64,000 nt of DNA, taken from the NCBI RefSeq assembly GCF_024228675.1, contig NZ_CP100461.1, positions 1,178,001 through 1,242,000 of the forward strand. Direction: 5' to 3'. The notes under the pieces are model-generated. The model ran no database searches, was not told where the DNA came from, and saw only the letters and a program-made list of their open reading frames with translations. How positions within the stretch are numbered: the stretch's first letter is position 1; each line of letters begins with the position of its first letter. Positions 44,687 to 57,895 of this stretch are shown in pieces. Both the position numbers and the translations under genes were made by a program. The DNA comes from Salinigranum marinum. GTDB taxonomy: Archaea; Halobacteriota; Halobacteria; Halobacteriales; Haloferacaceae.

Positions 44687-46051
44687 ATGGAACGGTCCCG
44701 GAACCCGGACGGACGCGCCACGGCTCAGCCGTCGCGCCGCCGGTTCCTCACCCGTGTGGGCGGGGTCGCGGCCGTGGGACTGTTCGCCGGCTGTAGCGGC
44801 CGGCGGGCGGACCAGCCCGCGCCGGAGTCCGAGACGCCGTCACCGACGCCGACGCCGACGCCGTCACCGACGCCGACGCCGACGCCGACGGGGCTGACGG
44901 GGACGTACTTCGTCGATCCCGTGGACGGCCGGAACGATCAGTCGGGAGGGAGCCCCGAGACGGCATTCCGTGACCTCCAGCCGCTGACCGCCGGCGGGCG
45001 CGTGACGCTCCGCCCCGGCGACGTGGTCAAACTCCGTGCGACCGCACCGATCGTCCTCGAAGACAGCGTCGACTTCTTCCGCGTTACGGGCACGAAGACG
45101 GCACCGATCGTCGTCGAGCCGTACGGCGACGGCCGGCCGCTGATCGACGCCAGCGGCGCGGGATCGTCCGCGATCCGCATGGAGGGCGCCCAGTACATGA
45201 CGCTTCGCGGCTTCGACCTCGCGAACGCCGACAACGACGGAATCCGGGTCCCCGGCGTCGCAAAGGGCGATCAGCCGGCGATCGGCTGCGTGTTCGAGGA
45301 CCTCGAGATCCACCACTACGGGCAGGGCGACGCGACCGAGGGCAACGGGATCGGCTTCTACCGTGACTCGTACGATCACGTCGTCCGGGACGTCGTCTGC
45401 CACCACGGGAGCGTCGACGGCAACTCCGACGGCTTCTACATCGGCGGGCAGAACCGGCGGTTCAGCGGCGGCCACCGCTTCGAGCGCTGCGTCGCCCACC
45501 ACAACGCCGACGACGGCTTCGACTTCTTCAGATGTGACCCCGACCGGCCGAGCGTCCTCGTCGACTGCCTCGCCCACTCGAACGGGAGCGACGGCGAGGG
45601 GGCGGTCGGCGACGGCAACGGCTTCAAGATGGGTGGGGGGTGGCGAACCGGGGGTAACCAGGTCGTCCGGGCCGTCGCGTTCGGCAACGACGCGATCGGC
45701 TTCGACTGCAACGGCGCGTCGGCGGCGAACTCGTTCGACAACTGCACCGCCTACGACAACGGCACGTACGGCTTCGAGTTCACCGGCGACACCGAACCCG
45801 ACCACGTCGTCCGCAACTGCATCGCCTTCGCCAACGGGGAGGGCCCGGCGAACCTGCTGTACAACGCCCGCTCGACGGCCAACACGTGGGACCTCGACAT
45901 CGACGACCCGCTGTTCGCGAGCGTCGCGACGGATCACGACCTGTTCCTCCACCTCCGGCAGGGGTCGCCGTGCATCGACGCCGGCGTCGACGTCGGCGTC
46001 GCCTACGTGGGTGACGCGCCGGATCTCGGGGCGTTCGAGTTCGACGGCTGA
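44687..46051 (+). CDS. Tat-exported beta-helix lipoprotein, polysaccharide lyase family 9-like, 454 aa
   Basis: Twin-arginine signal (RRRFLTRVGG, residues 17-26) combined with a lipobox ending at Cys36 (FAGC). A Ser/Pro/Thr tether built from PTPTP repeats (about 47-68) follows, then a right-handed beta-helix. The segments NADDGFDFF and DGNGFKMGGG resemble the conserved calcium-site and core strands of family 9 pectate lyases. If active it would cleave polyuronides at the cell surface, but catalytic Lys placement was not verified. The beta-solenoid gene follows after 181 bases. Confidence 0.85.
   Translation: MERSRNPDGRATAQPSRRRFLTRVGGVAAVGLFAGCSGRRADQPAPESETPSPTPTPTPSPTPTPTPTGLTGTYFVDPVDGRNDQSGGSPETAFRDLQPLTAGGRVTLRPGDVVKLRATAPIVLEDSVDFFRVTGTKTAPIVVEPYGDGRPLIDASGAGSSAIRMEGAQYMTLRGFDLANADNDGIRVPGVAKGDQPAIGCVFEDLEIHHYGQGDATEGNGIGFYRDSYDHVVRDVVCHHGSVDGNSDGFYIGGQNRRFSGGHRFERCVAHHNADDGFDFFRCDPDRPSVLVDCLAHSNGSDGEGAVGDGNGFKMGGGWRTGGNQVVRAVAFGNDAIGFDCNGASAANSFDNCTAYDNGTYGFEFTGDTEPDHVVRNCIAFANGEGPANLLYNARSTANTWDLDIDDPLFASVATDHDLFLHLRQGSPCIDAGVDVGVAYVGDAPDLGAFEFDG
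44837..44890. repeat. Hexanucleotide-type repeat (CCGACG) coding the PTPTP tether
   Basis: About nine CCGACG-like units, interrupted twice by CCGTCA, encode the Ser/Pro/Thr tether of the lipoprotein. A variable copy number would alter tether length without changing frame. Confidence 0.8.
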
Positions 46052-46121
46052 ACCTCGGTCGGGCTCGGGTTCGGTCGGTTCTGGGCGCACGTCCAGCGCG
46101 ACGGCGAACGGTGTGGGATAG

Positions 46122-46130
46122 ATTTATGTT
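46122..46130 (+). promoter_or_regulatory. TATA-like box upstream of the beta-solenoid membrane protein
   Basis: ATTTATGTT sits about 103 bases before the GTG at 46233, leaving a predicted leader near 80 bases, long for a haloarchaeon. The leader includes the GGAGG at 46220-46224. Confidence 0.5.
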
Positions 46131-46219
46131 TGAGGGCCAAAGCTTGTCGTTTGACTACCGTGTCGCCAGCTGCTGGGAGGGGACGGTGGACCGAGAGACC
46201 GGCCGAACGCCGACCGACC

Positions 46220-46224
46220 GGAGG
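46220..46224 (+). promoter_or_regulatory. Shine-Dalgarno element deciding the 46233 start
   Basis: GGAGG with 8 bases to the GTG at 46233. Strong SD elements are uncommon in haloarchaea, and this one supports the GTG (MSADDRNRC) as start. Confidence 0.6.
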
Positions 46225-46232
46225 CATCGATC

Positions 46233-49200
46233 GTGAGTGCTGACGATCGGAACCGGTGTGCGTACGCGCTCGCCGTCGACGCGTGGAACGACCGTCACGG
46301 GAGCGACGTCGCGGTGGAGCCCCGGTTCCTCAACGACGGGTCGTGGCACTGTCACCGACGGACTCGCCCGGACGACGACTACTGCTTATTCCACGACCAC
46401 CGCGCCGAGACGAGCGTCGAGAGCCGACGCCCGGCGGGCGAGGTCGCACACGACCTGCTCAACGGCGAAACCGACGACCGGCCGTGGAACGAGGGGGAAC
46501 CGGACGGGCTGTGGGAGGTGCCGGCGGCGTTCCCCCGCGACGAGTACAAACACCGACAGAAGCAGTTCATCGGGGCCTCTCTCGGACCGGTTCGGCTGTC
46601 GAACGAGCGGATCGACGCGATGGACGCGTACCCGGTGGATCTGCGGTGTGTCCGCGTCGAGACGCTCGATCTCCGCAACGCGCGGGTCGGGCACGAACTC
46701 CGGCTGTCGGGGGTCGCACAGACGGACGAGTCGGGCGCTGTGGCGCTCGACCGGGCACGGATCGAGGCCTCGCTCGACCTCGACGGCGCGGTCGTCGCTG
46801 GAGACGCCTCGCTGGATAACGCGACGGTCACTGGCGACGTGTCGCTTGACCGTGTGACGGTCGCCGGCGACGTCACGGCCGCCAGGCTGACCACGCACGG
46901 GACGGTCGAGATGACAGACGCGAACGTGACGGGCGGCGTGTTGATCGAAGACGCGACCGTCGGTGAGACGCTCACCCTCGACGGCACCGAGGTCGCCGAA
47001 CTCGCCGCACTCGACCGGACCGACACCGGGGCACACGTAACGCTCGATGGCATGTCGGTCGGTCGTGGCGTGTCGCTGAGGGACGCGAGGGTGGGCGAGG
47101 GCGTGAGCTTCGATCGGTTGGCGGTTCGACGAGGCGTCTCCTTCGCCGGTACCGAGGTGGGGACACGCGTCGTGTCAGGGAGTGGAGAGATCGGTGACAA
47201 CGTGATTCTCGACGGCGTCACCCTCGGAACCTTCCTCGTGTTCGAGGACATCTCCGTTGGCGGTGACGTGCGCTGTCAGGGACTGGAAGCCGGGCAGGGC
47301 GTGACCTGCACCGACGGGGTGGTCGAGGGAGACGTCGACCTGCGAATGGCCACCGTCGACGGGCACGTCGACGGCAACCGGACCGAGATCGGGGGAACGC
47401 TCGACTGCCACCACGCGGCAGTCGAACTCCTCTCGATCGGGGGCGCCGACGTGGGCGGTGACGCCGCCCTCGGCGATGTCGACGCCGACGGGCTCCAGGC
47501 CGAGGCGGTTACTGTTCGCGGGCGGGTCGACCTCGACACCGCAAACATCAGAGGGCTGGTCGAACTCAATGGAGCGGACGTGGCCGACTCGGTGTCGCTG
47601 ATCTCGACGACCGTCGATGGACAGATCGAGCTTGCGGACGCGTCCGTGGACGACGACGTCGAACTGATCAGTACCGACGTCGACGGAGGAGTCAAGCTCG
47701 ATGACGCCGCCGTTGGCGGGGACGTCAGCACCTCCGTGACCAGCGTGACGAACTACATCAGGCTCGAAGACGCCGAGATCGCGGGCGAGGTCTCGGTATC
47801 CAACAGCGATGTGGAGGGCGTGTTCATGCGGGGCACCGATGTCGACGGCGACGTGGCGCTCGCGAACGCGACCGTCGACGACCGCGTCTTCTTCGTCGGC
47901 GGGTCGGCCGGCGGATCGGTGATCGTTGACGGATCGACCGTCGGGGGCCGCATCGCGGTCACCCGAGATCCGGAGACGGGAGCGACGGCGCGTGTCGGCG
48001 GCCGACTCGCCGTCGAGGAGACGACTGCTGCGAGCGTCGTCGTCGGATGTGAACTCGCCCATCCGGCCGTCGAAGCGGTCTCGCTCCGCGGGTCGACCGT
48101 CGACAGTGGCTCCCTCCAGGCCGCCGCGGGCAGATCGGCCGAGGTCGTCTACGACTTCGACCGGACGACGATCGGCGACGTCGACATCGCCGCAGACGCC
48201 CCGAACCCGTTCGCACACGCCCGGTTTCTCGAGACTTCCTTCGCCGGGTTCGTGTTCAGCAGCAAGCGCGAGCAGTTCCGCGACACGGACTGGATGGTCC
48301 ACCAGCCGCGCAGCGGGGGGTACAGGGCAATCGGAGCCGTGACACAGACGGTCTCGTTCGACGGCGAGGCGGCCGGCGACGACACCGGGCCACAGGTCGT
48401 CTTCGACGCCGCGAGCGACCTCGCGGCGTCGCTCGTGGACTGTCTCGTCGCCGAGTCCGTCGACCACGGTTCGGCGGAAGACCGGTCGCTCGTGGAGCTC
48501 GTCGAACGGTACGAACACCGGGTAGCGGGTACCGACCGTCTCCTCGCGTATCTCGACCGAGCGTACGAACCGGTCGACGTGCCGGACCGCAGAGCGCAGG
48601 GAGACCCCATCACGTGGCTGTTCGACCGGGTGCGAGCGGTCACTCCTCCTTCAGTCAGCCGCTCGGCTCCGATCAGGGGGAGTCTCGACGAGGTCGAGCG
48701 GTGCGCGGCCGCCGTTCGAGAGGCACTCGACGACGACGAGATACGGCGGGCACTGGCGACCGACGGCGTCGACTCTCGGGCCGCGACCGAACTGGTACAC
48801 AGGACCGAAGCCGCGATCGCGCGCGACCTCGCCGATCCAGACGCCGTCCGCGGAACGGACAACCAACTAGAGTCGACGTACGCGAAGGCGAAAAACGGCG
48901 CGAGCGATGCGGGCGACGAGACGGCCGCGGGGAACTTCTTTCAGAAGGAAGCCGCCTACGCTCGTCGCCAACACTGGAACCGGGCACTCGGACGGATCGA
49001 AAGCGACTCCGGACCGGTCGAAGCCGGGCTCGACTGGCTCGGCAACGTCTTTCTCTGGGCGACGATGGGTTACGGTGAACGGCCGCTGCGTGTCCTCGGC
49101 TTTGCGGCCTCAATCGTGGTGGCGTTTGCGATGTTCTTCTGGGCCGCGCAAGCGGTCGGGGGCGTGGCGCCGTTTGCCGGGTCGGGGGTGCTCGGCTATC

Positions 49201-49355
49201 TCTCGGGCAGCCTCGGCCTGTTCGTCACGCTCGTCATCACACAGCCGGAGATCCAGAACGACTGGATTCGGCTCGCCGCCCAGTTGGAGGGGTTTCTCGG
49301 CGTGTTCGTCGTCGGGATGTTCGTCGTCGCGGTCACGCGTGCGATCCACCGCTGA
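46233..49355 (+). CDS. 1,040-aa beta-solenoid membrane protein with degenerate channel-like C-terminus
   Basis: N-terminal Cys/His cluster (C9, C40-H41, C51-x2-H54) with a spaced pattern resembling small zinc modules in haloarchaeal pentapeptide proteins. From about 115 to 650 runs a continuous array of roughly ten-residue units of the type GDVSLDxATV, about 45-50 of them, closer to a bactofilin/polymerising beta-solenoid than to canonical A(D/N)LXX pentapeptides. A helical region (about 700-945) includes YAKAKNGASDAGDETAAGNF, as in pentapeptide-linked channels. Two membrane helices (about 953-976 and 1012-1036) flank a pore-like stretch without the TxGYG filter. No signal peptide, so the solenoid is probably cytoplasmic. 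Function unknown. Confidence 0.85.
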   Translation: MSADDRNRCAYALAVDAWNDRHGSDVAVEPRFLNDGSWHCHRRTRPDDDYCLFHDHRAETSVESRRPAGEVAHDLLNGETDDRPWNEGEPDGLWEVPAAFPRDEYKHRQKQFIGASLGPVRLSNERIDAMDAYPVDLRCVRVETLDLRNARVGHELRLSGVAQTDESGAVALDRARIEASLDLDGAVVAGDASLDNATVTGDVSLDRVTVAGDVTAARLTTHGTVEMTDANVTGGVLIEDATVGETLTLDGTEVAELAALDRTDTGAHVTLDGMSVGRGVSLRDARVGEGVSFDRLAVRRGVSFAGTEVGTRVVSGSGEIGDNVILDGVTLGTFLVFEDISVGGDVRCQGLEAGQGVTCTDGVVEGDVDLRMATVDGHVDGNRTEIGGTLDCHHAAVELLSIGGADVGGDAALGDVDADGLQAEAVTVRGRVDLDTANIRGLVELNGADVADSVSLISTTVDGQIELADASVDDDVELISTDVDGGVKLDDAAVGGDVSTSVTSVTNYIRLEDAEIAGEVSVSNSDVEGVFMRGTDVDGDVALANATVDDRVFFVGGSAGGSVIVDGSTVGGRIAVTRDPETGATARVGGRLAVEETTAASVVVGCELAHPAVEAVSLRGSTVDSGSLQAAAGRSAEVVYDFDRTTIGDVDIAADAPNPFAHARFLETSFAGFVFSSKREQFRDTDWMVHQPRSGGYRAIGAVTQTVSFDGEAAGDDTGPQVVFDAASDLAASLVDCLVAESVDHGSAEDRSLVELVERYEHRVAGTDRLLAYLDRAYEPVDVPDRRAQGDPITWLFDRVRAVTPPSVSRSAPIRGSLDEVERCAAAVREALDDDEIRRALATDGVDSRAATELVHRTEAAIARDLADPDAVRGTDNQLESTYAKAKNGASDAGDETAAGNFFQKEAAYARRQHWNRALGRIESDSGPVEAGLDWLGNVFLWATMGYGERPLRVLGFAASIVVAFAMFFWAAQAVGGVAPFAGSGVLGYLSGSLGLFVTLVITQPEIQNDWIRLAAQLEGFLGVFVVGMFVVAVTRAIHR

Positions 49356-49486
49356 CCGGCGACGGTCCAGCGCCCGATCGCGGTGACGGAGTCGCAGTTC
49401 ACCCTACCGGGTCGGAGATCCGTCGACTCCGGCGTCCGCCGGTGTGCGCCGGACGGCGAAGCCGCCGAGTCGAACCCGCACGGCCG

Positions 49487-50278
49487 TCAGTCCGACTCGA
49501 CTTCTGCCGGCGCCGCGTGCGAGCCGAACTCGACGACAGTGCCGTCGTGCCGGCAGGTCTCGAGCGCGTGTTTCGCCATCATGCCGGCCTCGTGTGCGGT
49601 CGCGCCGACCCCGACGCCGACTTTCAGTTCGACGCCGACGCTCTCCTCGACGTGCTCGATCGCGGTGTGATACGCCTCGGTCGACAGCGCCGGACAGGCC
49701 GCGATGATGTTGTCCCCTCCCACGAAAAACGAGAGCGCGCCGTGCGCCTCGCGCATGTAGCGCATCAGCGCCGCGTACCCCTGTTCGATCTCGATGAACG
49801 AGTCGAACTCGTTGAGCTGGTCCGTGTACTTCTCCGTGGCGTCGTTGACGTCGAAGTGCGCGATCCGGACGTCGTCGTCGCGCCGGGCCGACGCCTCGAT
49901 CGGCGCGCCTTTCAGGACCTGCCGGCGGTTGCCGTCCTGTGCGCTCCCCATCCGCTGGAGTCGCTCGGTGGCGCGTTCGAGTGCGACCGCAGGCACCTCG
50001 TCGACCCCGATCCCGAGACTCACCGTCACGGGATACCGGTTCCCGATCGACTCCTGAAGGAGGGCGTGGTCCTCGGAGGTCAGGCCGTTCGTGACCGCGA
50101 TCATGTTGTCGAAGCGCGTGAAGAAGACGTAGCCGTCGCGCGCGCCGACGAAGTTCGCGAGATCGGCGAACAGCCGCGACTGCATCGTCTGCAGGTCCAT
50201 CTCCCGGCGGGGTTCGGGAGTGACCGTCCACGGGCCGTAGTTGTCGATCTGGACGAGAGTCAGCTGCGTGTTCGTCAC
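49487..50278 (-). CDS. gch3: GTP cyclohydrolase III (archaeal, riboflavin/F420 pathway)
   Basis: Archaeal GTP cyclohydrolase (also arfA), which opens the imidazole ring of GTP to give the formamido-pyrimidine first intermediate. It starts at GTG 50278 (TNTQLTLVQIDNYGPWTVTP). Signatures: DLQTMQSRLFADLANFVGAR, TRFDNMIAVTNGL, and the second GGDN motif (FFVGGDNIIAACP), a tandem GGDEF/palm-like fold. 263 residues. Confidence 0.95.
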   Translation of the reverse strand: MTNTQLTLVQIDNYGPWTVTPEPRREMDLQTMQSRLFADLANFVGARDGYVFFTRFDNMIAVTNGLTSEDHALLQESIGNRYPVTVSLGIGVDEVPAVALERATERLQRMGSAQDGNRRQVLKGAPIEASARRDDDVRIAHFDVNDATEKYTDQLNEFDSFIEIEQGYAALMRYMREAHGALSFFVGGDNIIAACPALSTEAYHTAIEHVEESVGVELKVGVGVGATAHEAGMMAKHALETCRHDGTVVEFGSHAAPAEVESD

Positions 50279-50376
50279 ACCCGCACCCAAGGAGGGCGGG
50301 AATATGCCTCCTTTGGTTTACGTCACGATCGTGAGGCACCCATCACAGTTGTGAGACGCGGGTGGCGCCCGAACTG

Positions 50377-53674: not shown

Positions 53675-56600
53675 GTGATTGGACCGAGGCTCGGAAGCGT
53701 ACGCGGGGTCGTCGTCGTGGTCGTCCTCGCGGTCGTGGTCGTCCTCGCGGTCGTCTTCGCCGCGGTCCCGCTCTACGGACCGATCGGGATCGCGAGCGGT
53801 GCCACCTGTACGACGGTCTCCGAGGCGACGGTCATCACGGAGCCCGGCTGTTACGTGGTGGGCGGCGACGTCGACGAACACGAGGACGGCGACTACATCA
53901 CGGTCGAGGCGAGCGACGTGGTCGTCGACGGCGACGGTCGCACGCTCGACGGCGAGGGGAACAACAACGCGGTCCACGTCGACGGCTCGTACACCAACGT
54001 CACCGTGCGGGATCTCACGGTCCGGGACTGGGACCGCGGCGTCTTCTTCAAGGACGTCACCGATGGGGTCGTCCGGAACGTCGAGGGCACGGGTAACAAA
54101 CACGCCGTCGAGTTCGACACGACGGCGTCGTCGACGGTCGACGGCGTCACCGCGTCGTCCAACGCCGAGTACGGGCTCTACCTGAAGGACGCGACCGGGT
54201 CGACCGTGGTCGACAGCACGGCGACGGGCAACGGTCGTCACGGGCTGTTCGTCGACGGGGGCGACGCGTCGGTAACCCGGATCACGGCGGACAGCAACAC
54301 CGAACACGGCGTTCACCTCAAGGCGGCCGACGGATCGACCGTCCGGTCGGCGACCGCGACGGGCAACAGCCTGCACGGCGTCTCCGTCGAGGACGTCGCC
54401 GACGGCGTCGTCGCCGACGCGACGGCCGACGACAACGGTGACGCCGGCTTCAGGGTCCACCACAGCGACCGCACCGTCGTAACGAACGTCACCGCCGACG
54501 GCAACGCACACGGCGTCCACCTCTCCTCGGCGACGACGACGCTGAACGACAGCACGCTCACCGCGAACACGGAGGGGGTCCGGCTCCAGAAACACGTCCA
54601 CACGGTGGCGAACGTCACGGTCGCATCGAGCACCGACTACGGGTTCTACCTCGATGAACCGGACAACAACGTCGTCAACGGGAGCCGGATCAACGACAGC
54701 GGCGTCGCCGGGATCTACTTCCCCGACGACAAGCCCGAGGACAACCTCTTCTACGACAACTACCTCAACAACTCGGACAACGTCCGGTTCGCCGACGATG
54801 TCCCCCCGACCGACTGGCACGTCTCTCGACGGACCGGAACGAACGTCGTCGGCGGGTCGCTCGTCGGCGGCAACTACTGGGCCGCCCCCGACGGGTCGGG
54901 GGCGAGCCAGATGTACGACAACGCCGACGGCGACGCGTTCCTCGACACGTCCTACACCGTCGCGGCGGGGACGACTGACGACCTCGCGCTCACCGACGTG
55001 ACCACCGCGTTCGACGTGACGCCGTCGCCGGTCGACTTCGGCACCGTCGGGTTCGGATCGACCACGACGCGGTCACTCCACGTCGAGAGCCGCGTTTCGG
55101 GCGACGTCACGGTCGAGGCGTTCGATCTCGCCGGCGACACCACCTCCGTCTCGGTGTCGAGCGACCCCTCGCCCGTCACGCTCTCGACGGGCGAGGCGAC
55201 GACCGTCGACGTGACCCTCGCACCCGCGACCAGCGGGTCGCTCTCGGCGACGCTCACGACGAACGCGGCCACCGACGCCTTCGACACGGAGACGGCGCTC
55301 ACGGCGACGGTCACCGACGACGAGTCGCCCACGGCGGCCACGGGAGCGGACGCGACGGTCGACGAGGACACGCCGGTGGCGTTCGACGGCTCGGGCTCGG
55401 ACGACAACGTCGCCGTCGCCTCGTACGCCTGGGCGTTCGGTGACGGGGCGACGGCGACCGGCCCGACGCCGTCACACACGTACGACGACCCCGGGACGTA
55501 CACCGCGACGCTCACCGTGACCGACACCGCCGGCAACACGGACACGGCCACGCGGGAACTGACCGTCGCGGACGCGACCGCGCCGGCCGCGGAGGCCGGG
55601 TCGAACCGGACGGTCCACGTCGACGAACCGCTCTCGTTCGACGGCTCGGGTTCGACCGACAACGTCGGCGTCGACACGTACTCCTGGACGTTCGGCGACA
55701 GCACCGGCGACTCGGGCGAGACCGTGTCGCACACGTACACGACGAAGGCGACGTACACCGTGACGCTCACGGCGGCGGACGCGGCCGGCAACACGGACAC
55801 CGACACCGCCACGATCGAGGTCGTCGACACGACGTCGCCGATCGCCAGACCCGGCCCCGACCGGACGGTCGACGAGGACACGCCGGTGACGTTCGACGGC
55901 TCGGCCTCGACCGACACGGGGAGCATCGTCTCGTACTCGTGGGAGTTCGGCACCGGCGACACCGCGACCGGGGAGTCGACGACTTACACGTTCAGCGATC
56001 CCGGGACGTACGCCGTGACGCTCACCGTCGAGGACGACGGGAACAACGAGGCGTCGAACGAGACGCTCGTCACGGTCCGGGACGTGACTCCGCCGACGGT
56101 GGACGCAGGGACGGACACGACCGCCGAGGAGGACACGGCGGTGTCGTTCACCCCCGCGACCGCGACGGACAACGTGGGCGTCGCCTCGTACACCTGGACG
56201 TTCGGCGACGGCAACACCTCCAGCGCCGCGAGCCCGAGCCACACGTACGCGACGCCGGGCACGTACACCGCGACACTCACCGCGACCGACGCCGCCGGCA
56301 ACACGGCGTCCGACACCCGGATCGTGACCGTGACGGACGTGACCCCGCCCACCGCGACGGCCGGTCCGGCGCGAACCGTCTCGGTCGGCGACCCCGTCTC
56401 GCTCGACGGGTCGGCCTCGACCGACAACCGCGGCGTCGACGCGTACGACTGGAGCCTCGGCGACGGTTCGACGGCGAGCGGCGCGACCCCGTCGCACACG
56501 TACGCGACGCCGGGGACGTACACCGCGACGCTCACCGCGACCGATGAGGCCGGCAACGCGGACACCGACTCCACGACGGTGTACGTCTCGGACACGACCG

Positions 56601-57895
56601 ATCCGGTGCCCGACGCCGGCGGTGATCGGACCGTGCCCGTCGGCGACCCGGTCACCCTCGACGCGACCGCCTCGACGGACGACGTCGGCATCGACTCGTA
56701 CATGTGGGACGTCGACGGCACGGCACGGCTGGAGGGGGGCACGGCGACCGAGACGTTCGACACCCCCGGGACGTACGCCGTGACGCTCACCGTGCGGGAC
56801 GCCGCCGGGAACCGCGCGTCCGAGAGCGTCCGCATCACCGCCGAGGCCGACTCGACGGCCGGTGGCGGGGGCGGGGGGAGCGGTGCCGGATCGGCCCCGG
56901 CACCGTCGACGCCCGGCGCGACCACGCCGGCACCGACGAGCACCCCCGAGGCGACGACGCCCGACCCCGCGCCCACGGTCCGGACCGCGGAGACGGCCGT
57001 GACCGCGGGCGACCCCGTCTCGGTCGCGTTCGACGGCGACGACGGCGAGGCCGACGCCCCCGACGCGACCGTCGGCGTTACCGGCATCGGCTTTACCCCG
57101 TCGGTGAGCGAGACGGTCTCGCTCCGCGTCACGACCGGACGGGGACTCGACGGCTCGCCCGCGTTCGACCGGGACGACAACACCGACCTGCTCTCGAACG
57201 TCAGGGTCGACCACTCGATCGACAACGCCGACGTGACGGACGTCTCGGTCGGTTTCCGCGTCTCGAAGGCGCGGCTCGCCGACCGCGGCGTGGCCGCCGA
57301 GGAAGTCGCGCTCTACCGCTATCAGGACGGTGCGTGGGCCGAGTTACCGACGACGGTCGTCGCCGAGGGCGACGACGCCGTTCGTTTCCGCGCGTCGTCG
57401 CCGGGACTCTCCGAGTTCGCCGTCGGCGCGAAACAGCCGAACTTCGAGCTCCGGACGGTCAGAGTCGCCGTCGACGAGATCCGGGTGGGCGACAGCCTCC
57501 AGGTGTTCGTCCGGATCACCAACGACGGCGGGGCCGACGGCGCGTTCGTCGCGAACCTCGTCATCGACGACGCGGTCGTCGACAGCCGGGAGCTGACCAT
57601 CGCCGCCGGGGGTCGCCGACAGGTCCAGTTCGAGCGCCCCATCGCCGAGGCCGGCTCGTACACCGTCCGGGTGAACGACGCCGTCGCCGGCGAGGTCATC
57701 GTCACGAGCGACGGGGACGACGACCCGGCGACGACGGCCGTCGGAACCGCCGCCGACGGGTCGGCGACCGTAACCGATCCCGGTGACGGCGGCACGTCCG
57801 GCACCGGGACCCTCGGTATGGCGGGTGCCGTCGCCGCGCTCGTCGTCGTGCTGGGCGGCGGTGTCGTCGGCTACTACCGGCGGCGATCGGGCTGA
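53675..57895 (+). CDS. Large surface protein: beta-helix, six PKD repeats, PGF-pre-PGF-like domain, CARDB-like domain, C-terminal helix
   Basis: 1,406 residues. Signal/anchor helix near the N-terminus, then a NosD-like right-handed beta-helix (about 50-420). A HYDIN/choice-of-anchor-like domain (about 445-545) precedes six PKD repeats of about 85 residues (550-1058), each with a W-x-F/L-GDG core and HTY element. A Gly/Ser/Thr/Pro linker, a PGF-pre-PGF-like domain (about 1172-1252), a CARDB-like domain (VRITNDGGADGAF) and a final helix followed by RRRSG complete it. No PGF tripeptide is present before the last helix. Likely cell-surface binding or adhesion. Confidence 0.9.
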   Translation: MIGPRLGSVRGVVVVVVLAVVVVLAVVFAAVPLYGPIGIASGATCTTVSEATVITEPGCYVVGGDVDEHEDGDYITVEASDVVVDGDGRTLDGEGNNNAVHVDGSYTNVTVRDLTVRDWDRGVFFKDVTDGVVRNVEGTGNKHAVEFDTTASSTVDGVTASSNAEYGLYLKDATGSTVVDSTATGNGRHGLFVDGGDASVTRITADSNTEHGVHLKAADGSTVRSATATGNSLHGVSVEDVADGVVADATADDNGDAGFRVHHSDRTVVTNVTADGNAHGVHLSSATTTLNDSTLTANTEGVRLQKHVHTVANVTVASSTDYGFYLDEPDNNVVNGSRINDSGVAGIYFPDDKPEDNLFYDNYLNNSDNVRFADDVPPTDWHVSRRTGTNVVGGSLVGGNYWAAPDGSGASQMYDNADGDAFLDTSYTVAAGTTDDLALTDVTTAFDVTPSPVDFGTVGFGSTTTRSLHVESRVSGDVTVEAFDLAGDTTSVSVSSDPSPVTLSTGEATTVDVTLAPATSGSLSATLTTNAATDAFDTETALTATVTDDESPTAATGADATVDEDTPVAFDGSGSDDNVAVASYAWAFGDGATATGPTPSHTYDDPGTYTATLTVTDTAGNTDTATRELTVADATAPAAEAGSNRTVHVDEPLSFDGSGSTDNVGVDTYSWTFGDSTGDSGETVSHTYTTKATYTVTLTAADAAGNTDTDTATIEVVDTTSPIARPGPDRTVDEDTPVTFDGSASTDTGSIVSYSWEFGTGDTATGESTTYTFSDPGTYAVTLTVEDDGNNEASNETLVTVRDVTPPTVDAGTDTTAEEDTAVSFTPATATDNVGVASYTWTFGDGNTSSAASPSHTYATPGTYTATLTATDAAGNTASDTRIVTVTDVTPPTATAGPARTVSVGDPVSLDGSASTDNRGVDAYDWSLGDGSTASGATPSHTYATPGTYTATLTATDEAGNADTDSTTVYVSDTTDPVPDAGGDRTVPVGDPVTLDATASTDDVGIDSYMWDVDGTARLEGGTATETFDTPGTYAVTLTVRDAAGNRASESVRITAEADSTAGGGGGGSGAGSAPAPSTPGATTPAPTSTPEATTPDPAPTVRTAETAVTAGDPVSVAFDGDDGEADAPDATVGVTGIGFTPSVSETVSLRVTTGRGLDGSPAFDRDDNTDLLSNVRVDHSIDNADVTDVSVGFRVSKARLADRGVAAEEVALYRYQDGAWAELPTTVVAEGDDAVRFRASSPGLSEFAVGAKQPNFELRTVRVAVDEIRVGDSLQVFVRITNDGGADGAFVANLVIDDAVVDSRELTIAAGGRRQVQFERPIAEAGSYTVRVNDAVAGEVIVTSDGDDDPATTAVGTAADGSATVTDPGDGGTSGTGTLGMAGAVAALVVVLGGGVVGYYRRRSG
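55322..56850. repeat. Six tandem ~255-bp PKD repeats in the surface-protein gene
   Basis: Units begin near 55322, 55574, 55829, 56085, 56338 and 56594, a period of about 255 bases. Units 4 and 5 are closest to one another (both contain SPSHTYATPG or TPSHTYATPG), suggesting a more recent duplication. Confidence 0.8.

What the first reader, a model, noticed from the sequence alone, without database searches (positions are those of the whole stretch)
46233..49355. Giant beta-solenoid fused to a two-helix, channel-like membrane end without a selectivity filter
Seen: Cys/His N-terminus, about 45-50 tandem ~10-residue G-x-V-x-L-x-x-A-x-V units, a helical linker with a YAKAKN...DETAAGNFFQKEA segment, then helix, pore-like loop and helix. 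Known: pentapeptide-repeat proteins in bacteria and archaea can carry a similar helical segment before a two-helix ion channel ending in TxGYG. Inference: this is the same architecture with the pentapeptides replaced by a different solenoid and the filter lost (the loop reads LFVTLVITQPEIQND), suggesting a non-potassium pore, a mechanosensor or a membrane tether rather than a classical channel. No signal peptide, so the solenoid probably hangs in the cytoplasm.
Basis: partly seen in the sequence, partly recalled or inferred. Interest (0 to 1): 0.65.

Follow-up and report, generated by a model that had tools for sequence, protein, structure and literature searches.

The report
Pentapeptide-solenoid channel without potassium filter
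A haloarchaeal gene encodes a long repeat-built rod joined to a membrane part that descends from potassium channels, but in this salt-loving lineage the signature ion filter was replaced, apparently once, by a conserved greasy motif, so the channel fold has probably been given another job.

Summary
The ORF (46233-49355, GTG start, 1040 aa) and its anatomy are real: Cys/His N-terminus, about 45 tandem repeats (period 11, not 10), conserved linker, then TM1, pore helix, loop and TM2. Relatives with the same architecture and a normal K+ filter (T-x-G-Y-G-D) occur in haloarchaea and bacteria, and the C-terminal domains align along their whole length. The window protein belongs to a haloarchaeal clade of at least 60 distinct proteins. 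In it the first filter glycine is V/I/L/F/M in every member, and the loop became S-x-[QE]-S-F-x-[TA]-[LF]-[VIL]-[LI]-G. A tree built without the pore loop puts them on one side of one branch (support 97/93). AlphaFold2 gives a two-helix channel fold, and the pore domain is under purifying selection. Correction: the solenoid was not swapped. It is still a Pentapeptide_3 solenoid, with the same 11-residue period as most filter-bearing relatives. The gene is accessory: two congeners lack it at the same site. HalA of anti-phage Hailong is the nearest solved analogue, but the membership test fails. Whether the remodelled pore conducts cannot be decided here; I narrowly favour a gated, non-K+-selective pore over a dead pore. 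New variant of a known kind.

The parts
46233..49355 (+). Whole gene: pentapeptide-solenoid protein with filterless two-helix channel fold, 1040 aa, GTG start
46257..46394 (+). N-terminal Cys/His motif (C9, W38, C40, C51, H54), zinc-finger-like by pattern only
   Evidence: at least 90% conserved in 24 relatives; the same kind of motif in the Aeromonas relative
46629..48191 (+). Pentapeptide-type beta-solenoid, about 45 units of 11 residues (residues 133-653)
   Evidence: period, Pfam PF13576, AlphaFold2 strands, pLDDT about 90 over most of it
48324..48776 (+). Query-specific helical insertion of low confidence (about residues 698-848)
   Evidence: pLDDT below 50; relatives are much shorter between the solenoid end and the TY motif
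48867..48986 (+). Conserved helical linker (residues 879-918, LESTYAKAKNGA..GDETAAGNFFQKEAAYARR)
   Evidence: family hallmark in filterless and filter-bearing members
49068..49085 (+). GYGERP motif just before TM1 (residues 946-951); not the ion filter
   Evidence: invariant or nearly so in both classes
49083..49160 (+). TM1, outer helix (residues 951-976)
   Evidence: AlphaFold2, pLDDT at least 90
49188..49229 (+). Pore helix (residues 986-999)
   Evidence: AlphaFold2; S993 and F997 are nearly invariant in the clade
49227..49241 (+). Replaced filter: T-L-V-I-T (residues 999-1003) where relatives have T-x-G-Y-G
   Evidence: gap-free column alignment of 63 filterless and 59 filter-bearing sequences
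49260..49349 (+). TM2, inner helix (residues 1010-1039) with hinge glycine and C-terminal TR..HR
   Evidence: AlphaFold2; hinge Gly 63/63 and Thr1035 61/63 in the clade

Best explanation
The protein is an accessory, cytoplasm-facing sensor or effector of the inner membrane. Shown by sequence: it belongs to a single haloarchaeal clade derived from pentapeptide-solenoid two-helix K+ channels, in which the TxGYG filter was replaced by a conserved hydrophobic motif, with matched changes in the pore helix and at the inner end of TM2. Inferred: it forms a tetramer like other two-helix channels. The Cys/His head and the solenoid sit in the cytoplasm and bind a partner or ligand. Through the TYxKAKN linker and the GYGERP collar they hold or open the membrane part. 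When open, the pore is not K+-selective; when closed, the hydrophobic ring seals it. HalA, a solved anti-phage effector that matches this architecture weakly, is the working model for a ligand-held pore (general knowledge).
For: Full-length C-terminal homology to filter-bearing channels, probability 100, E 3.8e-48, and over TM1-pore-TM2 alone. All filter-bearing members hit Ion_trans_2 and K+ channel structures. Gap-free replacement of the filter in 63 of 63 members with a conserved new motif. Co-ordinated class-specific changes at residues 991, 995, 1001 and 1035. Single branch, support 97/93, with the pore loop left out. dN/dS 0.04-0.28 in the last 95 residues of 11 close pairs. AlphaFold2 two-helix pore fold, mean pLDDT 84.6, whose best structural neighbours are almost all tetrameric cation channels. 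Charge pattern fits N-in/C-in: +1.0 before TM1, +1.9 at the C-end, -0.9 in both outer loops. Accessory status: empty site in two congeners and patchy presence.
Against: No direct evidence for conduction, ligand or tetramer. No Foldseek hit reaches E 0.001 (best 0.18). Bulky aliphatic side chains at the filter argue as much for a sealed pore as for an altered one. The window protein is itself a divergent member: it lacks the clade's Q/E-S pair and the third glycine (G-L and T instead). No conserved neighbour gene points to a ligand maker.
Confidence: 0.45

Rival explanations
1. Dead-pore scaffold: the channel fold is kept only as a tetramerising membrane anchor that clusters four solenoids under the membrane. 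No ion passes; the hydrophobic motif plugs the old filter.
For: First filter glycine replaced by V/I/L/F/M in 63 of 63 and Tyr by L/I/V. Independent further erosion elsewhere, including a member whose pore loop is missing but whose C-terminal TLTR end is kept (L024). The window protein has lost even the remaining motif residues.
Against: The replacement motif is conserved in detail (S 63/63, F 62/63, third Gly 55/63) and a new Q/E was gained at 995 (52/63). The TM2 hinge glycine is 63/63. Pure packing need not preserve a glycine at the old filter mouth.
Confidence: 0.37
2. It is still a K+ channel with an unusual filter.
For: Descent from K+ channel-like relatives.
Against: No glycine at the two key positions in the window protein, no filter Asp (48 of 59 in filter-bearing members), no Ion_trans_2 match in any of 13 members.
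Confidence: 0.05
3. It is a HalA-type anti-phage effector, held shut by a nucleotide or DNA signal.
For: NF051894 (HalA) matches solenoid and C-terminal domain of several relatives weakly, and one bacterial filter-bearing relative over positions 67-336 of 338 at 29.6 bits. 9nyi_A is among the Foldseek hits. Patchy, accessory distribution.
Against: The window protein has no NF051894 match and no relative is near the 250-bit cut-off. No PADLOC match. No conserved neighbour and no nucleotidyltransferase recognised beside the gene.
Confidence: 0.1
4. Artefact or unrelated membrane anchor: chance resemblance to a two-helix channel.
For: Foldseek E-values alone are not significant.
Against: Profile comparison, shared linker and GYGERP motif, gap-free pore alignment and tree.
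Confidence: 0.03

Closest known systems
Pentapeptide-repeat proteins ending in Ion_trans_2 (haloarchaeal, Omnitrophota, Aeromonas; annotated 'pentapeptide repeat-containing protein' or 'potassium channel family protein')
   Same: Cys/His N-terminus, pentapeptide-type solenoid (often period 11), TYLKAKNGA..GD linker, GYGE(R)P collar, two helices around a pore loop
   Different: They keep F-T-T-L-G-Y-G-D-x-x-P and hit PF07885. The window clade has no filter, Q/E in the pore helix and Thr for Gly at the inner end of TM2
HalA, effector of the anti-phage Hailong system (PDB 9nyi, NCBIfam NF051894; Tan et al. 2025, doi 10.1038/s41586-025-09058-z, not held, so not read)
   Same: Solenoid plus C-terminal channel domain, by partial HMM matches and Foldseek; described as an ion channel blocked by poly-dA adducts of HalB (PMC13275509)
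   Different: Window protein has no significant match, is about three times longer, and has no recognised partner nucleotidyltransferase. HalA's own pore loop could not be read here
Two-helix K+ channels and relatives (KirBac, NaK, GIRK2)
   Same: Predicted outer helix, pore helix, loop, inner helix; GIRK2 3syo probability 1.00, rmsd 2.6 A over 92 columns
   Different: No filter; the cytoplasmic domain is a pentapeptide solenoid
Bactofilins (PF04519)
   Same: Beta-solenoid with weak profile similarity
   Different: 20.9 bits, below the 27.9 cut-off; no membrane domain of this kind

Membership tests
Pentapeptide repeat proteins (PF13576 Pentapeptide_3) | Profile score above gathering cut-off | tested here: met
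   49.8 bits against 27; 24 of 24 relatives hit
Pentapeptide repeat proteins (PF13576 Pentapeptide_3) | Tandem five-residue repeats, 20-residue coil | tested here: not met
   Period is 11, 22 per putative coil; the same in most filter-bearing relatives, so a sub-type rather than another family
Ion_trans_2 two-helix K+ channels (PF07885) | T-x-G-Y-G selectivity filter | tested here: not met
   T-L-V-I-T at 999-1003; first Gly absent in 63 of 63 clade members
Ion_trans_2 two-helix K+ channels (PF07885) | Pfam PF07885 match | tested here: not met
   0 of 13, against 8 of 8 filter-bearing relatives
Ion_trans_2 two-helix K+ channels (PF07885) | Outer helix, pore helix, re-entrant loop, inner helix | tested here: met
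   AlphaFold2 monomer, pLDDT 84.6; best structural neighbours are channels, though E is 0.18 or worse
Ion_trans_2 two-helix K+ channels (PF07885) | Common descent with filter-bearing members | tested here: met
   hhalign probability 100, E 3.8e-48; TM part alone 99.2-99.5
Ion_trans_2 two-helix K+ channels (PF07885) | Tetramer that conducts ions | not testable with these tools
   No multimer prediction or assay available
Hailong HalA (NF051894) | Score above the 250-bit cut-off | tested here: not met
   No match for the window protein; best relative 29.6 bits
Hailong HalA (NF051894) | Partner HalB nucleotidyltransferase gene alongside | tested here: not met
   Neighbours are EPSP synthase, beta-helix lipoprotein, GTP cyclohydrolase III, HAD phosphatase, OsmC; no conserved neighbour across relatives. 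No dedicated HalB profile was run
Bactofilin (PF04519) | Profile score above cut-off | tested here: not met
   20.9 against 27.9 bits

The most novel reading that the evidence does not exclude
A haloarchaeal lineage turned a pentapeptide-crowned K+ channel into a new kind of gated pore with a conserved hydrophobic filter motif (SxQSFxTLVLG), working as an accessory, perhaps immune, membrane effector without K+ selectivity.
Probability: 0.3. Interest if true: 0.78.

Novelty: new variant of a known kind. Interest (0 to 1): 0.55.

Why it matters
The TxGYG filter is one of the most conserved motifs in biology. Here is a natural series in one protein family, from intact filter through partial variants to a clade-wide conserved replacement, in organisms whose cytoplasm is nearly saturated with KCl. 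It makes a clear question testable: can a two-helix channel fold keep working, and for what, after the filter is replaced by aliphatic residues? It also gives members now annotated only as 'pentapeptide repeat-containing protein' or 'hypothetical protein' a defined architecture and a link to a family that includes a solved, ligand-held ion channel (HalA).

Tried and rejected
(2) PDB sequence search with the window protein or its C-terminus: nothing; with the filterless profile: only chance-level hits. (3) Attempts to obtain HalA's own sequence to read its pore loop: PDB alignments, genome searches with NF051894 and the paper itself all failed. (4) Solenoid as bactofilin or left-handed hexapeptide: weak and below cut-off. 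(5) Gene neighbourhood as a clue: first script timed out; the second found no conserved partner. (6) Defence annotation: no PADLOC match. (7) First quick tree joined a long-branched Armatimonadota sequence to the window protein; judged long-branch attraction and removed along with other long rows before the careful tree. (8) A first regular-expression classifier of filters failed and was replaced by a column-based one. (9) A full-length Foldseek search gave no useful solenoid match.

Full report
OBSERVATION. The ORF at 46233-49355 is real. It starts with GTG about 9 nt after GGAGG and encodes 1040 residues. The N-terminal Cys/His residues, the YAKAKN...FFQKEA segment and the loop LFVTLVITQPEIQND are as described.

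WHAT THE SOLENOID IS. Pfam assigns Pentapeptide_3 (49.8 bits, cut-off 27); Bactofilin is below its cut-off. All 24 full-length relatives scanned hit Pentapeptide_3. Period 11 is the main period in 26 of 38 filterless and 11 of 11 filter-bearing proteins long enough to test; a minority of filterless ones use true 10-residue or 5-residue repeats. The solenoid was therefore not exchanged; this protein has an aliphatic-rich version of the family's own solenoid. AlphaFold2 models residues 167-653 mostly at pLDDT about 90, with two short strands per 11 residues, which suggests a 22-residue coil (inference).

WHAT THE C-TERMINUS IS. A search of 99 related genomes found the C-terminal domain in 39. 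Aligning it revealed two classes that share a linker (TYLKAKNGA..GD..AA..FF.RE..RR), a collar (N..L..T.GYGERP.RV), TM1 and TM2 (EGFxGAFxIALFVF), but differ in the pore loop. One class has F-T-T-L-G-Y-G-D-x-x-P. All 8 tested hit Ion_trans_2, and their profile finds K2P, NaK and Kir channels in the PDB (best 7e-8). The other class, to which the window protein belongs, never hits Ion_trans_2 (0 of 13). Profile-profile comparison joins the two over their full length (probability 100, E 3.8e-48). With the linker removed, TM1-pore-TM2 still aligns at 99.2 (haloarchaeal) and 99.5 (bacterial filter-bearing), and pore helix-loop-TM2 alone at 98.6-99.1. The rows had been placed on a joint HMM first, so its E-values are optimistic; one search used independent alignments.

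THE FILTER. In a gap-free alignment, 59 filter-bearing sequences have Gly at the first filter-glycine column (59 of 59) and Y/F/L/M next; by definition the classes were split on these columns. What is not by definition is that the filterless loop has its own conserved motif: S 63/63, Q or E 52/63 two residues later (V/I/L in the other class), F 62/63, then [TAS]-[LF]-[VIL]-[LI]-G with the last Gly kept in 55/63. The most class-specific columns lie at both ends of the pore: residues 991, 995, 1001 in the pore helix and filter, and 1035 at the inner end of TM2, where Thr is 61/63 and the other class mostly has Gly. The window protein is a divergent member: S-L-G-L-F-V-T-L-V-I-T lacks the Q/E-S pair and the last Gly.

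ONE ORIGIN. With the pore loop columns removed and long branches left out, the 54 filterless rows are one side of a branch (ultrafast bootstrap 97, SH-aLRT 93.8). The bootstrap had not fully settled and the alignment has only 139 columns, so the inner order is unreliable. In the first quick tree 61 of 63 grouped. By my count of the rows whose loops were read, about 46 of 170 genomes of the window's family carry a filterless member. Named carriers include Halorubrum, Halobellus, Haloferax, Haloarcula, Natrialba, Halobiforma and Natronoglomus. In a 393-genome sample of the phylum, strict filterless members appeared only in the haloarchaeal order. Bacterial relatives found are filter-bearing (Omnitrophota, Myxococcota, Latescibacterota, Armatimonadota; Aeromonas; Nostoc with a variant T-I-G-F-P-D).

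STRUCTURE AND SELECTION. AlphaFold2 of residues 861-1040 with 27 rows gives pLDDT 84.6 and pTM 0.73: helices 951-976, 986-999 and 1010-1039. Foldseek's best 50 PDB matches are almost all tetrameric cation channels (Kv, Kir, CNG, NaK; also GluA1 and HalA), for example GIRK2 at probability 1.00 and rmsd 2.6 A over 92 columns, but none reaches E 0.001; treat this as consistent, not as proof. Eleven close pairs of filterless genes show dN/dS 0.04-0.28 over the last 95 codons, so the membrane domain is maintained. Net charge is positive before TM1 and at the C-end and negative outside, fitting a cytoplasmic N- and C-terminus.

GENOME CONTEXT. The own genome has one member. In two congeners the flanking lipoprotein and GTP cyclohydrolase III genes end about 60 bp (L216) and under 10 bp (L217) apart, with nothing between. 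The gene is therefore an accessory gain in this genome or a loss in the others. GC3 is 0.83 against 0.89-0.92 in neighbours. No neighbour is conserved across relatives. Relatives also sit on haloarchaeal plasmids.

HOW IT MIGHT WORK. Shown: common descent with K+ channel-like proteins, loss of the filter, a conserved replacement, purifying selection, predicted pore fold. Inferred: tetramer; cytoplasmic solenoid and Cys/His head as sensor; linker and collar as the coupling; a pore that no longer selects K+. An aliphatic ring cannot offer the carbonyl cage of TxGYG (general knowledge of KcsA), so either the pore is a gated non-selective one or it is sealed. I put 0.45 on the first and 0.37 on the second. 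The kept third glycine, the gained Q/E and the fully conserved hinge glycine tip the balance. [quoted passage not shown] The primary paper was not available, and the window protein fails the HalA membership test.

LITERATURE. Searches for pentapeptide repeats together with ion channels or selectivity filters found no paper on this architecture. A 2021 review of pentapeptide repeat proteins does not contain the word 'channel' (PMC8145042). Only open-licence papers were searchable.

VERDICT. Observation confirmed, interpretation partly supported, new variant of a known kind, interest 0.55.

Noticed in passing
L107 5167-10099 (same region as L045), L050 3296-12108, L102 3-6543: Tandem pairs of pentapeptide-channel genes, one with a normal TLGYGDIQP filter and one with a variant TLEYVG/TLEYVN: a second, separate filter change, perhaps a subunit that assembles with its neighbour.
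   Followed up: partly
L024, L159, L231, L243, L246, L253: Further, apparently independent filter erosions in the family (for example FVTLTPPGYIPG, FTLQPHDSMPS, FLTMSYKEWIP), including one protein with the pore loop missing but the C-terminal TLTR end kept.
   Followed up: partly
window 44687-46051 (+): Beta-helix protein with an apparent twin-arginine/lipobox N-terminus and pectate-lyase-PelN-like similarity (67.7 bits, far below the 740 cut-off), directly upstream; conserved in congeners at the same site.
   Followed up: partly
window 46051-46233 and 49355-49487: Borders of the accessory segment; two congeners lack about 3.3 kb here. No obvious mobile-element gene seen.
   Followed up: partly
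window 53675-57895 (+): Large ORF of 1406 aa; a relative also lies near the filterless genes of L031 and L032.
   Followed up: no
window 49487-50290 (-): GTP cyclohydrolase III (archaeal IIa type), convergent with the finding.
   Followed up: no
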